Source: Gemmatimonadota bacterium
Lineage (GTDB): Bacteria; Gemmatimonadota; Gemmatimonadetes; Gemmatimonadales; Gemmatimonadaceae
Length of the DNA: 64,000 nt
Direction: 5' to 3'
NCBI GenBank assembly: GCA_028287305.1
Contig: JAQBPX010000032.1
Location: 62,001-126,000, forward strand
Shown here: piece by piece, positions 15,830-26,168 of the stretch
Layout of the letters: every line of letters begins with the position of its first letter
How positions within the stretch are numbered: the first letter of the stretch is position 1
Position numbers and translations under genes: made by a program
Notes under the pieces: model-generated
Database searches by the model: none
What the model was told of the DNA's origin: nothing
Seen by the model: the letters and a program-made list of their open reading frames with translations, nothing else

Positions 15830-15932
15830 GTCTAACGCCCAAGCTAGGCTGCGAGCGCGTCAGAATTAATAAGCGGCGGCGGAGCCGCCGCGTACAATAC
15901 TGGCGCTCGTCAGCTTCAGCGCCACGTTAGGA
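15830..15932 (-). other. attC site 9 (103 bp)
   Basis: Cores GTCTAAC (15830-15836) and GTTAGGA (15926-15932) flank a strong palindrome; the tip contains the inverted repeat GCGGCGGCGGAGCCGCCGC. The inner arms CCCAAGC...GGCTGCGAGCGC and GCGCTCGTCAGCTTCAGCGCC are the array-wide L motifs. The stop TAA of the SMI1/KNR4 gene is in the right core. Confidence 0.85.
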
Positions 15933-17182: not shown

Positions 17183-17251
17183 GTTTAACGCCCAAGTTCG
17201 GCGGCAAGCCATGAAATCACAGCGGCTTGTCCGCTGCAACGCATGTTAGGC
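17183..17251 (-). other. attC site 7 (69 bp)
   Basis: GTTTAAC (17183-17189) and GTTAGGC (17245-17251) enclose a short palindrome with GCCCAAGTTCGGCGGC and TTGTCCGCTGCAACGCAT arms. It is the shortest attC here that still looks complete. Confidence 0.8.
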
Positions 17252-18555: not shown

Positions 18556-18681
18556 GCCTAACGCCAAAGTTCAGCAGCGGATGCCATTTCGCGCAGGGAG
18601 AAACCCCCGACGACTCGAGATAGCGATCGCGCGCTCTACAAGGATGCTGCACGCGCGCGCCTGCTGCAACGCACGTTAGGC
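18556..18681 (-). other. attC site 6 (126 bp)
   Basis: GCCTAAC (18556-18562) and GTTAGGC (18675-18681) are perfect matches to the integron core consensus. The inner region is longer than usual, with GCGATCGCGCGC near its centre. Right arm: TGCTGCAACGCAC. The stop codon of the DUF4279 gene lies in the right core. Confidence 0.85.
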
Positions 18682-19174: not shown

Positions 19175-19276
19175 GCCTAACGCCCTGGCTAAGCTGCGAG
19201 CGCGTCCAATTAATGAGCCGCGGCGGAGAAGCCCCGTACCGTGCCGGCGCTCGTCAGCTTCGGCGTCACGTTAGAC
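19175..19276 (-). other. attC site 5 (102 bp)
   Basis: GCCTAAC (19175-19181) and GTTAGAC (19270-19276) flank a palindrome whose interior is much like attC 9 (GCTGCGAGCGCGTC, AATTAAT, GCGCTCGTCAGCTTC). The cassette 5 gene reads about 60 bp into it. Confidence 0.85.
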
Positions 19277-19803: not shown

Positions 19804-19907
19804 CGAACTCCAGAGCTGTCTAGAAGTTATGACTGGGCTGGCCTCCGATCTCGGCGTGGGTTAGTTCCTCGAGCGTTGAGCCGGAGTCACCAGAGCCACC
19901 TGCGACG

Positions 19908-21089
19908 ATGCCACATGTCGCACACGGAGACCAACCCATGTCATCGCGTGCCGCGGTCGAACGTGTTGCTCGCCCTATCATCTATCTCGGGATGGATGTG
20001 CACAAGGACTCCATCACCGTGGCGGTCCTGCCGGAGGGCGCGAAGACGCCGACCCGCCTGGACCGGCTCCCGAATGACCTGCCCAAATTAAAGCGTTGGC
20101 TCGAGCGCGTGGCCCGGGACGGGGCGGTGCGCGCCTGCTACGAGGCGAGTGGGGCGGGGTATGTGCTGCACCGCGCGCTCACCGAGTGGGGCATCCCGTG
20201 CGAGGTGATCGCGCCGTCGCTCATCCCGAAGCGGTCGGGCGTCCAGCGGAAGCATGACACGCGCGACGCAGCCGATCTGGCGCGCCTGTATCGGGCCGGC
20301 GAGCTCGTGGCCGTGCGCATCCCGAGCGAGGCCGATGAGCGGGTGCGCGACGTGGTGCGCTGCCGCGAGACCTTCCAGCGCGAGATCCTCAAGTCGCGGC
20401 ACTACATCCTCAAGTTCCTGGCGCGACGCGGCTTCGTGTTCCGCGAAGGGACCAACTGGTGCACCCCGCACCTCAAGTGGCTCCAGCACCTGACGACAGA
20501 CGGCTCGCCACTCGCCGCCGAGGACCGCCTGATCTATCGCGAGTATCACGCGCTGTTGATGTACAAGCTGCAGCGACGCGAGGAACTCGACCGGCAGATC
20601 GAGCAGCTGGCCCTGCTGCCGGCGCTCGCCCCGATGGTCGGGCGCCTGCAGTGCTTCCGCGGCATCTCGCTCCACTCCGCGATGGTCTTGGCGACGGAGA
20701 TCGTCGATTGGCGTCGCTTCGAGCGGCCCGCGCAGCTCGCGTGCTACCTGGGGTTGGTGTCGCGCGAAGACTCGAGTGGCAACCAGCAGCGACTCGGGTC
20801 AATCACGAAGGCCGGGAACAGCCACTGTCGCCACGTGCTGGTCCAGGCGGCCTGGAGCTATCGGCACCGGCCGCAATCGAGCGTCGATCTCGTGCGACGA
20901 CAGCGGGGTCAGCCGCCCGCGGTGATCACGCACGCGTGGAAGGCGCAGCAGCGCCTGCATCAGCGGTTCAATCATCTGTCGTACCGCAAGCGCCCGCAGA
21001 TCGCAGTCGTCGCGGTCGCGCGTGAGCTGGTCGGGTTCCTGTGGGCCGTGATGCAGGACACGAACCCGACTCCGGCGCTCGCCGCGTGA
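19908..21089 (+). CDS. IS110-family (IS1111 group) DEDD transposase
   Basis: The 393-residue protein has the RuvC-like DEDD domain at the N-terminus (IYLGMDVHKDSITVAVLPEG, first aspartate near residue 30; YEASGAGYVLHRAL; HDTRDAADLARLYRAGELVAV) and the C-terminal Transposase_20 domain (LQCFRGISLHSAMVLATEI, LACYLGLVSREDSSG, GSITKAGNSHCRHVLVQAAWSYRHRP) that contains the conserved serine. These enzymes cut and join DNA under the direction of a structured RNA encoded by the element. ATG 19938 (MSSRAAVERV) is an equally good start. Confidence 0.92.
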   Translation: MPHVAHGDQPMSSRAAVERVARPIIYLGMDVHKDSITVAVLPEGAKTPTRLDRLPNDLPKLKRWLERVARDGAVRACYEASGAGYVLHRALTEWGIPCEVIAPSLIPKRSGVQRKHDTRDAADLARLYRAGELVAVRIPSEADERVRDVVRCRETFQREILKSRHYILKFLARRGFVFREGTNWCTPHLKWLQHLTTDGSPLAAEDRLIYREYHALLMYKLQRREELDRQIEQLALLPALAPMVGRLQCFRGISLHSAMVLATEIVDWRRFERPAQLACYLGLVSREDSSGNQQRLGSITKAGNSHCRHVLVQAAWSYRHRPQSSVDLVRRQRGQPPAVITHAWKAQQRLHQRFNHLSYRKRPQIAVVAVARELVGFLWAVMQDTNPTPALAA

Positions 21090-21351
21090 GGCTCGTGATC
21101 GTGGCGCGGCGTGTGGCGTCGAGGCTCGATGTGCGAGCACGCTCGACGGCGTTATGCGGGCCGGGTCGAACGCAGCACCGGCATCCCCGCGTCTAGAATG
21201 AGCCAGCTCCCGACGAATCCGCTTCTTGCCGCGCTGCCGAGGCCACTCGGTAATCGGCGCATATCAGCAGGATCAACCGTCGATGCTGCCTCGCGCCCAC
21301 GTCGTCCCACGATCACTCGCTATCGCTGTGGTATGCACTGACCGCTTGACA
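21090..21351 (+). ncRNA. Candidate guide (bridge/seek) RNA region of the IS1111-type element
   Basis: The 262 bp between the transposase stop and the right inverted repeat hold no gene. Two short segments match the insertion site: GGCGTTA at 21148-21154 is the complement of TAACGCC on the right side of the target, and GTCTAGAA at 21191-21198 equals the left junction at 19818-19825. Short matches to one strand of each flank are what guide loops of this family show. Limits and folding are unknown. Confidence 0.45.
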
Positions 21352-21509
21352 CCAGCCCAGTCATATCAACGCCCAAGCTCAGCTGCGGGCGCCGAGCGCG
21401 CGCGCGGATGTCGAGGATATGATGGAGCCGAGCAGGGCACAACCCTATGCCCGCCACGCGCCCGTCAGCTGTAGCGCACGTTAGACAGCAGAGACTGAGT
21501 GACCTGCCC

Positions 21510-22076: not shown

Positions 22077-22220
22077 GTGCTCCTCCGCCTGTCCATCAAC
22101 GATGTTCTGGCTGCTGTCTAACGCCAGAGCTCAGCTGTGGGCGAGCTTAATAAATGCGAGCGAAGCAAGATTCCAATGATCGCCCGGGATCTTGCGTCGC
22201 TTTCGTTGACACCTGATGGA

Positions 22221-23240
22221 TTACGCTGCGCGGCATTCAAAGGCAATAGGTGAGAGGTAGCGCAGCGCCGAATGAATGCGCGTCGTGTTGTAATAGTGCA
22301 TATAGCGTTGCAGTTGTCCGCGAAGATGGCGATCGGTGGGAAAGTGCACGCCACGGGTGAGTTCGGCCTTGAGCGAGTGGAAGAACGATTCAGCATGCGC
22401 GTTATCTCCCGGCCCGCGCACATTCGCGCTTTGCGCGATTCCGAGCGCGGCCAGCCGGTCGCCAAACGGAGCGCCCATGTACTCCGACCCTCGATCACTG
22501 TGAAAGATCACCCCGCGGGTGGGCCGGTGCGCGGCCGCCTTGTCGAGCGCCCGACAAACGACCGCCGAAGTGCGGCGCCGTGTGAGCGTCCAGCCGAGAA
22601 TCCGACGCGAATATTGATCCATGACGATCGCCAGGTACCGCCACTCATTCGCGACTCTCAGAAACGTGATATCCCCGACCCACACCTGGTTCACCCGCGT
22701 GACCTTCATGCTCCAGAGTCGTTTCGGATGCCGCGCATAGAGGTGATAAATCTTCACCTTCGCGCGATAGCCGAGGACGGCCCGTCCACGCAGCCCCGCG
22801 TCGTGCATGAGCTGCGCGACGCGACGCCGACTCACGATCCAGCCCTCCGACCGGAGCGCGCGCCAGATGCGCGGACTCCCGTAGCGGGCGCGATGCTGGC
22901 GAAATATCCGCAGGATGGCGATCGATAGCTCTCGGTTCTGTTTGCGGTGCGCGCTCTCACCCCGTCGTCGGGCCGCGTAAAAGCCGGCCCGTGTTACTCG
23001 ATAGAGACGACAGAGGGCAGCGACGCTCAGGCCGGCGCATTGCGTCTCAATGAACGCAAAGATGTCGGCTTTCGAGCGGAACAGAACCGGATGGCTTTTG
23101 TTAGGAGTTCGTGCTCCTGGCGCAATTGCGCGTGCTCCCGCTCGAGCCGTTGCAGCGCGGCGATCTCCCGCGAGGGGCCGGGGGGTGGCGCCTTTGGCGA
23201 CCGGCCTCGCAGTCGCCCATCGCGGAAATCCTTTCGCCAC
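22221..23240 (-). CDS. IS3-family transposase OrfB (DDE integrase domain)
   Basis: The productive part starts at the frameshift near 23095 and carries an HTH_21-like region (KADIFAFIETQCAGLSVAALCRLYRVTRAGFYAARRR, GSPRIWRALRSEGWIVSRRRVAQLMHDAGL) and the rve/DDE core: the first aspartate in WVGDITFL, the second in IFHSDRGSEY, the glutamate in DNAHAESFFHSLKAEL. The end (YYNTTRIHSALRYLSPIAFE) is typical. It is made as an OrfAB fusion by -1 frameshifting at AAAAG (23095-23099), where OrfA reads CTA-ACA-AAA-GCC. Residues upstream of that point in this frame are not expected to be used alone. Confidence 0.9.
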   Translation of the reverse strand: MAKGFPRWATARPVAKGATPRPLAGDRRAATARAGARAIAPGARTPNKSHPVLFRSKADIFAFIETQCAGLSVAALCRLYRVTRAGFYAARRRGESAHRKQNRELSIAILRIFRQHRARYGSPRIWRALRSEGWIVSRRRVAQLMHDAGLRGRAVLGYRAKVKIYHLYARHPKRLWSMKVTRVNQVWVGDITFLRVANEWRYLAIVMDQYSRRILGWTLTRRRTSAVVCRALDKAAAHRPTRGVIFHSDRGSEYMGAPFGDRLAALGIAQSANVRGPGDNAHAESFFHSLKAELTRGVHFPTDRHLRGQLQRYMHYYNTTRIHSALRYLSPIAFECRAA

Positions 23241-23380
23241 TTCGACAACATGAAGGGGTGGATCTCCAGCGCCGTGGCCACGGTCTTCACCTGAACCCCG
23301 GCCTGCTGACTCAAGCGAACGGCGGTGAGCTTAAACTCGTCGCTGTACTTCCGGACCGCGCGTGGTCGTGCTTTGGGCAT
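23027..23380 (-). CDS. IS3-family transposase OrfA (HTH)
   Basis: The 117-residue protein begins with RAVRKYSDEFKLTAVRLSQQAG, then VKTVATALEIHPFMLSKWRKDFRDG, a HTH_Tnp_1 domain that recognises the element ends. A leucine-zipper-like segment follows (EIAALQRLEREHAQLRQEHELLTKAI). The AAAAG slippery run lies in the ELLTKA codons, where translation shifts to OrfB. Confidence 0.9.
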   Translation of the reverse strand: MPKARPRAVRKYSDEFKLTAVRLSQQAGVQVKTVATALEIHPFMLSKWRKDFRDGRLRGRSPKAPPPGPSREIAALQRLEREHAQLRQEHELLTKAIRFCSARKPTSLRSLRRNAPA

Positions 23381-23456
23381 GCCGACACTCTCCTGGCTCG
23401 TTAGGTGAAAGTGTCAACGAAAGTGGAGCACGAACCCCCGTCTGCTGCAGCGCACG

Positions 23457-24090
<634 letters not shown>

Positions 24091-24096
<6 letters not shown>

Positions 24097-25135: not shown

Positions 25136-26100
25136 CTAGTAGTCTACCGGGCTCTTCACTCCCAGCGCTCCCATCTTCGTGATGTGCGTGTAGCGCATGG
25201 TCTGCTTCACGTCGGAGTGGCCAAGCAGCACCGAATGGTTCGCAGGTCGGTGCCTCGCTCGAGAAGCTGCGTCGCGAAGGAGTGACGGAAGCAATGGCAA
25301 TGCACCCTGACCGTCAGCCCCGCCTCGGCGGCCGCCTGCTTGACGGCGCGCTGGAGCCCGGAGGGGTGCAGGTACCATCGCTCCACCTGGCGGCCGCGAG
25401 GGTCTCGCGACGTTCGCGTCGACGGAAAGAGCCAGTACCACGCCTCGGAACTGGCGGCGCCGGGATCCTTGGCCCCGAAGGCGTTGGGAAGTCCCACGAT
25501 TATGTGGGCCTTTCGGTCCTCCCGGTATCGTGCGCGTGCTCGCTCCATCTGCCTCTTGAGCTCGGGCAATGCACGCTCGGCGAGCGGCGTCATGCGGTCC
25601 TTGTCTCCCTTGCCGGCATGCACGGTGAGGGTGCGGCGCGCGAGGTTGACGTCCTTCAGTCGCAGGGTGAGGCACTCCGAGACACGGAGCCCGCTGCCCC
25701 AGAGCAGCATCGCGGCGAGCCGATGCTCGTCCACAAGATGGTCCATCACCGAGTTGCACTCGGCGATGCTGAGGGTGTCGGGCACGTGCTGCGGGCGCTT
25801 GGCATGGAGGTTCTCGTGGTCCCAATCGAGCTCGCGCCGCAGCACTCTGTCGAAGAGGAACTTGAGGGCGGCCAGCGCCTGGTTCTGGGTGCTGGCCGAG
25901 CAGCGTTCCTCGGAGGCGATGTGGGTGATGAACCGGCGGACGTCGCGCTCGTCCATCTCGTTCGGGTGCCGGAGCTGGTGGAACCTGATGAACTTCCTGG
26001 TCCACCAGATATAGGTCTTCTCGATGCGCGGGCTGCGGTGGAGGAGGCGCATCTCCTGGCGTATCTGGTCGATGAGGCGGGGTGGGGTGGGGGAGGGCAT
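25136..26100 (-). pseudogene. intI: Integron integrase IntI, single-base frameshift near the 3' end
   Basis: Tyrosine recombinase of the integron type. SAM-like core-binding domain 1-100 (RTEKTYIWWTRKFIRFH-type start, ATQNQALAALKFLF), catalytic domain with Arg139 (GSGLRVSECL), Lys164, HCFR (His269/Arg272), a second histidine in LLGHSDV, and the nucleophile Tyr in MRYTHI. The IntI-only insertion is present (GLPNAFGAKDP...WYWLFPS, about 203-226). After TDLRTI the frame breaks at about 25243: one base is missing (CGGTG where CAGGTG is expected), and the end GHSDVKQTMRYTH is in another frame. Unless this is a sequencing error, the protein lacks its nucleophile. It runs in the same direction as the cassettes. 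ATG 26100 is chosen; ATG 26160 is also open. Confidence 0.9.
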
Positions 26101-26168
26101 TGCGGACTCATAGCTGGTTTGCGGGGCACGGAAGCATCGTTTTGGTGCGGGGTGGGGCAAACGGCAAC

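What the first reader, a model, noticed from the sequence alone, without database searches (positions are those of the whole stretch)
19818..21370. IS1111-type element inserted base-exactly in an attC core
The 13-bp inverted repeats ATGACTGGGCTGG lie inside the ends; removing 19822-21367 recreates GTCTAACGCC without any lost or extra base. Known: the IS1111-attC subgroup of IS110 elements targets attC sites. This would be a member in a non-proteobacterial chromosomal integron.
Basis: partly seen in the sequence, partly recalled or inferred. Interest (0 to 1): 0.8.

Follow-up and report, generated by a model that had tools for sequence, protein, structure and literature searches.

The report
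Guide-RNA jumping gene in integron site
A soil-bacterium (Gemmatimonadota) jumping gene has landed, base-exactly, in the recombination site of an integron gene cassette, and its relatives do the same because a short RNA they encode spells out that site; this extends a mechanism known from proteobacteria to another phylum rather than being a new kind of system.

Summary
Confirmed. Window 19822-21367 is an intact 1546-bp IS1111-type element (DEDD transposase, perfect subterminal repeats, 7/3-bp extensions, 3' non-coding region). It splits the R' core of an attC between GTCT and AACGCC with no base lost or gained. The attC belongs to a chromosomal integron: intI at 25207-26160 passes TIGR02249, and six other attCs lie at 15.8-24.1 kb. 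The own genome holds one copy, so the refutation test was run on relatives: with the window, 13 insertions in Gemmatimonadota interrupt an attC at the same base and orientation; relatives with other guide sequences sit at other sites; a few are unresolved. The 3' region encodes a two-domain RNA with covarying stems, and its two loop segments match the right and left flank of each copy far above shuffled pairings (0 of 20000). A seekRNA/bridge RNA that reads the attC core is the best explanation. One relative, in a genome with ~117 differently spelt attC sites, carries guides for that spelling. New are the phylum, the lineage (no plasmid relative above 42% identity) and the guide/attC matching; the mechanism is published. 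Kinship with ISKpn4/ISPst6/ISPa21 could not be tested.

The parts
19822..21367 (+). IS1111-type insertion sequence, 1546 bp (boundary ambiguous by one base: 19823-21368 equivalent)
19822..19828 (+). left terminal extension AGAAGTT (7 bp)
   Evidence: conserved AGAANNN in relatives
19829..19841 (+). left subterminal inverted repeat ATGACTGGGCTGG
19908..21089 (+). DEDD transposase ORF (393 codons; likely true start 19938); D30, E79, D117, D120 and S290 invariant
21120..21285 (+). predicted seekRNA/bridge RNA in the 3' non-coding region: target-binding hairpin followed by a second (probably donor-binding) hairpin
21148..21153 (+). right-target guide GGCGTT, complementary to the top strand of the right flank AACGCC
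21191..21194 (+). left-target guide GTCT, identical to the left flank GTCT (pairs with the bottom strand)
21352..21364 (+). right subterminal inverted repeat CCAGCCCAGTCAT
21365..21367 (+). right terminal extension ATC (3 bp)
19818..19821 (-). outer part (AGAC) of the split R' core of the interrupted attC
21368..21486 (-). remainder of the interrupted attC (R'' GTCTAAC ... GGGCGTT of R')
15830..15932 (-). intact attC with the same 10-bp target GTCTAACGCC
17183..17251 (-). intact attC, core GTTTAACGCC
18556..18681 (-). intact attC with target GCCTAACGCC
19175..19276 (-). intact attC with target GCCTAACGCC
22116..23462 (-). attC whose loop carries an IS3 element; the GTCTAACGCC target itself is intact
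24004..24096 (-). intact attC with target GCCTAACGCC
25207..26160 (-). integron integrase intI, same strand as the cassette genes

Best explanation
An intact IS1111-family element that inserts into the R' recombination core of integron attC sites because its 3' non-coding region encodes a seekRNA (bridge RNA) whose two short guides, GGCGTT and GTCT, pair with the two sides of GTCT|AACGCC. Shown here: structure and ends, exact insertion, conserved attC location in relatives, a conserved RNA fold with compensatory changes, and co-variation of both guides with both flanks. Inferred: that the RNA is made and loaded by the transposase, that a circular intermediate integrates, and that the insertion blocks recombination at this attC. 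It lies antiparallel to the cassettes because the guides fix its orientation.
For: Exact empty-site restoration. Six other attCs in the same array, five with the exact 10-mer class. Relatives in Gemmatimonadota (L003-L006, L008, L012, L061, L065 and four copies in one genome, L075/L089/L148/L149) interrupt attC at the same base. Guide against right flank: 112 of 152 positions match against 61.5 +/- 6.0 in shuffled pairings, 0 of 20000; elements outside attC alone 85 of 120 against 49.6 +/- 5.1; left guide 88 of 125 against 58.7 +/- 4.2. Elements with other targets carry other guides, e.g. ACCCCCCT for flank AGGGGGGT, AGCGCCCT for AGGGCGCT. RNA fold: 95% of cells paired against 32-42% when slid, 11 pairs with double changes. 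The top-strand guide lies 5' of the bottom-strand guide, the order reported for IS1111 seekRNAs (PMC11187229).
Against: Single copy in the own genome. Some relatives match poorly (L069, L070, L063, L010); L063's guide (GGCGTT) does not match its right flank (AACAACG), though its left flank is lost at a contig end. Folding energy of the single sequence is not better than shuffles; the support comes from covariation. No expression or transposition data. The guide columns were picked on an alignment made here after seeing matches, and the elements are related, so the shuffle test does not remove all shared ancestry; the agreement across many different targets is what counts.
Confidence: 0.92

Rival explanations
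1. The transposase recognises the attC hairpin (folded or single-stranded), as IntI does, rather than the base sequence alone.
For: The attC-sited copies lie in real attC folds. In two host genomes the 10-mer GYCTAACGCC occurs 232 and 290 times, and none of 20 places looked at was an attC, yet the single full-length copy found in each genome is in an attC (L061, L062).
Against: Relatives of the same clade with non-attC guides insert at ordinary sequences that match those guides. In the own genome 7 of 9 intact 10-mers are attC R' ends anyway, so sequence alone explains attC there. Copies inside genes may simply be lost by selection.
Confidence: 0.12
2. Chance: a non-specific IS that happened to land in an attC.
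For: Only one copy in this genome.
Against: Thirteen insertions at the same attC base including the window's, and guide-flank matching.
Confidence: 0.01
3. It is a direct descendant of the known proteobacterial IS1111-attC group, brought in with cassettes (same mechanism as the best explanation, different ancestry).
For: Same target class and same family architecture.
Against: Relatives above 55% identity were found only in Gemmatimonadota; no plasmid relative exceeds about 42% in a collection rich in class 1 integron plasmids; the 19-member clade is separate from the proteobacterial rows with 100/100 support and contains many non-attC members. No ISKpn4/ISPst6/ISPa21 sequence was available, so this is not excluded.
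Confidence: 0.1

Closest known systems
IS1111-attC group (ISKpn4, ISPst6, ISPa21, ISPa25; [quoted passage not shown]
   Same: IS1111 architecture, 7/3-bp extensions, 3' non-coding region with seekRNA, insertion at one end of attC sites
   Different: Host phylum Gemmatimonadota rather than proteobacteria; transposase of a clade of its own in the tree made here (direct comparison not possible); guides fit local attC spellings
ISEc11 / ISXne4 (natural seekRNA redirection pair, PMC11187229)
   Same: Close relatives whose guide segments differ in step with their targets
   Different: Targets unrelated to integrons
IS621 (IS110 bridge RNA, PMC11208160; PDB 8wt6)
   Same: DEDD recombinase family, two-loop RNA pairing with target and donor
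   Different: IS110 type: RNA in the left end, no long subterminal repeats; sequence match to the solved chain is weak (E 4.8e-6)
IS4321/IS5075 (target Tn21-family terminal repeats)
   Same: IS1111 member hitting a mobile element at a fixed site
   Different: Different target; only about 22% identity between IS4321 and relative L014; the window protein was not compared with it directly

Membership tests
IS1111 family | subterminal inverted repeats of 11-13 bp | tested here: met
   13 bp perfect, 14 with flanking T/A
IS1111 family | asymmetric terminal extensions, 7 bp left and 3 bp right | tested here: met
   AGAAGTT / ATC from the restored empty site
IS1111 family | longer non-coding region downstream of tnp | tested here: met
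   21090-21351 downstream (262 bp to the repeat) against 66-96 bp between left repeat and start codon
IS1111 family | DEDD transposase with C-terminal Transposase_20 domain | tested here: met
   PF01548 + PF02371; D30, E79, D117, D120, S290 invariant in 8 diverse members
IS1111 family | no target duplication | tested here: met
   removal restores GTCTAACGCC exactly
IS1111 family | 3' RNA with top-strand guide 5' of bottom-strand guide | tested here: met
   by sequence and covariation only
IS1111-attC group | insertion in attC at one fixed position and orientation | tested here: met
   window plus 12 insertions in relatives
IS1111-attC group | transposase clusters with ISKpn4/ISPst6/ISPa21 | not tested
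   no reference sequence found in the collections; tree without them
IS1111-attC group | exactly the same attC base as ISKpn4 | not testable with these tools
   figures and the 2008/2009 papers are not held
chromosomal integron | IntI integrase | tested here: met
   TIGR02249 297 bits, cut-off 265
chromosomal integron | array of attC sites in one orientation | tested here: met
   seven attCs, R' always towards lower coordinates
chromosomal integron | attI site and cassette promoter | not tested
   not looked for

The most novel reading that the evidence does not exclude
A Gemmatimonadota lineage of IS1111 elements gained attC targeting independently of the proteobacterial ones, by guide changes alone, and its guides follow the attC spelling of each host's integron (GGCGTT where attC reads AACGCC; ACACGTT in a genome with about 117 sites like ATAACGTGTGCTTCTGCTG and only two GYCTAACGCC).
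Probability: 0.45. Interest if true: 0.62.

Novelty: new member of a known kind. Interest (0 to 1): 0.42.

Why it matters
It carries guide-RNA-directed attack on integron recombination sites beyond proteobacteria and gives a natural series of related elements with many different guide/target pairs, useful for reading the IS1111 targeting rules. It also makes testable whether such elements follow the attC spelling of their host and whether they freeze cassette order.

Tried and rejected
Searched plasmids for proteobacterial attC-targeting references and read the flanks of 26 records: none clearly in attC, so no ISKpn4-type reference was obtained. L014 (GGCAT|AACGTTTT) and L134 (CACCT|AACGCCTT) have attC-like cores but no clear arm partner and were left unassigned. 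L063, L066 and L067 were not assigned to attC (mismatched flank, unknown site, missing right end). Rfam gave nothing. Single-sequence folding was no better than shuffles. The pattern CATATCAACGCC across the phylum was too short to be useful. Chance insertion was rejected on the relatives.

Full report
WHAT IS THERE. The perfect inverted repeats ATGACTGGGCTGG lie at 19829-19841 and 21352-21364. Deleting 19822-21367 joins GTCT to AACGCC and restores GTCTAACGCC with no base lost or added; one base (A) is shared, so 19823-21368 is equivalent. Outside the repeats there are 7 bp (AGAAGTT) on the left and 3 bp (ATC) on the right, the lengths published for IS1111 elements (PMC11187229). The ORF 19908-21089 is an IS110/IS1111-family DEDD transposase with D30, E79, D117, D120 and S290 invariant among eight diverse members; the conserved ATG at 19938 behind GGAG is the likelier start (sequence). 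A 262-bp non-coding stretch follows the gene.

THE SITE. The element lies in an attC of a chromosomal integron. intI at 25207-26160(-) passes TIGR02249 (297 bits, cut-off 265). Seven attCs lie at 15.8-24.1 kb, all with R' towards lower coordinates; five of the other six carry exactly GYCTAACGCC, against 0.20 expected in the window. On the cassette strand the interrupted site reads ...GGGCGTT|AGAC: the R' recombination core GTTAGAC is split. The transposase gene runs against the cassette genes.

THE REFUTATION TEST. The own genome (4.37 Mb, 39 contigs) holds no other copy by DNA, protein or end sequence. Relatives were found in Gemmatimonadota; the host itself is placed there because genomes of its own family return the same loci as records named Gemmatimonadaceae or Gemmatimonadetes (inference). 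Copies L003, L004, L005 (= L062), L006, L008 (= L076), L012, L061, L065 and four copies in one genome (L075, L089, L148, L149) all have the right flank AACG continuing into an attC arm, and a left flank ending in T before AGAA where it is readable (L012 lacks a readable left flank, L005 has a worn R''). With the window that is 13 insertions at the same base and orientation. L004 and L006 come from one metagenome bin.

HOW IT PICKS THE SITE. In the 3' region a short segment equals the reverse complement of the right flank and a second equals the left flank: in the window GGCGTT (21148-21153) for AACGCC and GTCT (21191-21194) for GTCT. Relatives with other targets have other segments in the same alignment columns: GCCCCT for AGGGGC, ACCCCCCT for AGGGGGGT, TCAACT for AGTTGA, AGCGCCCT for AGGGCGCT, TGTTATCC for GGATAACA. 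Taking one element per distinct 6-nt right flank, 112 of 152 positions match against 61.5 +/- 6.0 for shuffled partners (0 of 20000 reach it); without the attC elements 85 of 120 against 49.6 +/- 5.1; for the left guide 88 of 125 against 58.7 +/- 4.2. The right flank nearly always begins with A and the left flank mostly ends in T, so part of the agreement is trivially shared; the shuffles keep that part.

THE RNA. Eighteen aligned regions give a two-hairpin consensus. The first hairpin holds both target guides on opposite sides of an internal loop; the second carries CATATCAG, which resembles the right IS end (TCATATC|A), so it is probably the donor-binding part (inference). 95.1% of cells pair, against 32-42% when the partner is slid; 11 pairs show changes on both sides, and 59 cells change on both sides against 20.6 +/- 3.2 shuffled. 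Single-sequence energies are unremarkable. The order, top-strand guide first, is the one reported for IS1111 seekRNAs (PMC11187229).

LINEAGE. A maximum-likelihood tree puts 19 Gemmatimonadota transposases in one clade with 100/100 support, apart from proteobacterial and actinobacterial rows. attC-sited members occur in the window's own subclade and also as L065 and L075, mixed with members at other sites (L064 next to an IS630-like transposase gene; L066; L068-L071). So the target changes within the clade. No plasmid relative exceeds about 42% identity. Whether ISKpn4, ISPst6 or ISPa21 fall inside this clade could not be tested.

GUIDE AND HOST. The genome with four copies (G073) contains about 117 sites like ATAACGTGTGCTTCTGCTG and two GYCTAACGCC; its element carries ACACGTT and GCAT. 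The window genome has none of the former, and seven of its nine intact GYCTAACGCC are attC R' ends. In two further hosts (G156, G241) the 10-mer is common (290 and 232) and mostly not attC (0 of 20 looked at), yet the one full-length copy found in each is in attC. That leaves room for an added attC requirement or for loss of harmful insertions.

NOVELTY. attC-targeting IS1111 elements and their seekRNA are published (PMC11187229). New here are the phylum, the lineage and the guide/target series. Gemmatimonadota are already listed among integron carriers (PMC8618304); a search for attC, integron integrase and Gemmatimonadota found only two reviews in the held library. I file it as a new member of a known kind.

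Noticed in passing
22186-23437: An IS3-family element (transposase 22221-23240, imperfect terminal repeats) sits in the loop of another attC of the same array (22116-23462), leaving both core sites intact.
   Followed up: partly
25207-26160: intI lies on the same strand as the cassette genes with its 3' end facing the array, the 'inverse integron' arrangement.
   Followed up: no
G000 C4:673214 (L145) and C12:141715 (L146): Two orphan attC-like sites far from the integron in the same genome.
   Followed up: partly
G156 and G241 genomes; L173-L192: The word CGTTAGGC/GCCTAACG, equal to the attC R' core, is the most over-represented 8-mer in 400 kb of G156 (121 against 47 expected by a Markov model), scattered and mostly not in attC folds; GYCTAACGCC occurs 290 and 232 times in the two genomes.
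   Followed up: partly
L064: A close relative is inserted next to an IS630-like transposase gene, apparently at that element's end; L072 shares the flank AGTGTAGTGTC but no IS was recognised there.
   Followed up: partly
G073 (L075, L089, L148, L149): A genome with about 117 attC sites of one spelling in several arrays and four IS copies all in attC: a good system for studying IS load in a large integron.
   Followed up: partly
L007 (= L073): A relative targets the palindrome AGGGGCAGCCCCATGTGGCTGCCC, with a matching GCCCCT guide.
   Followed up: no
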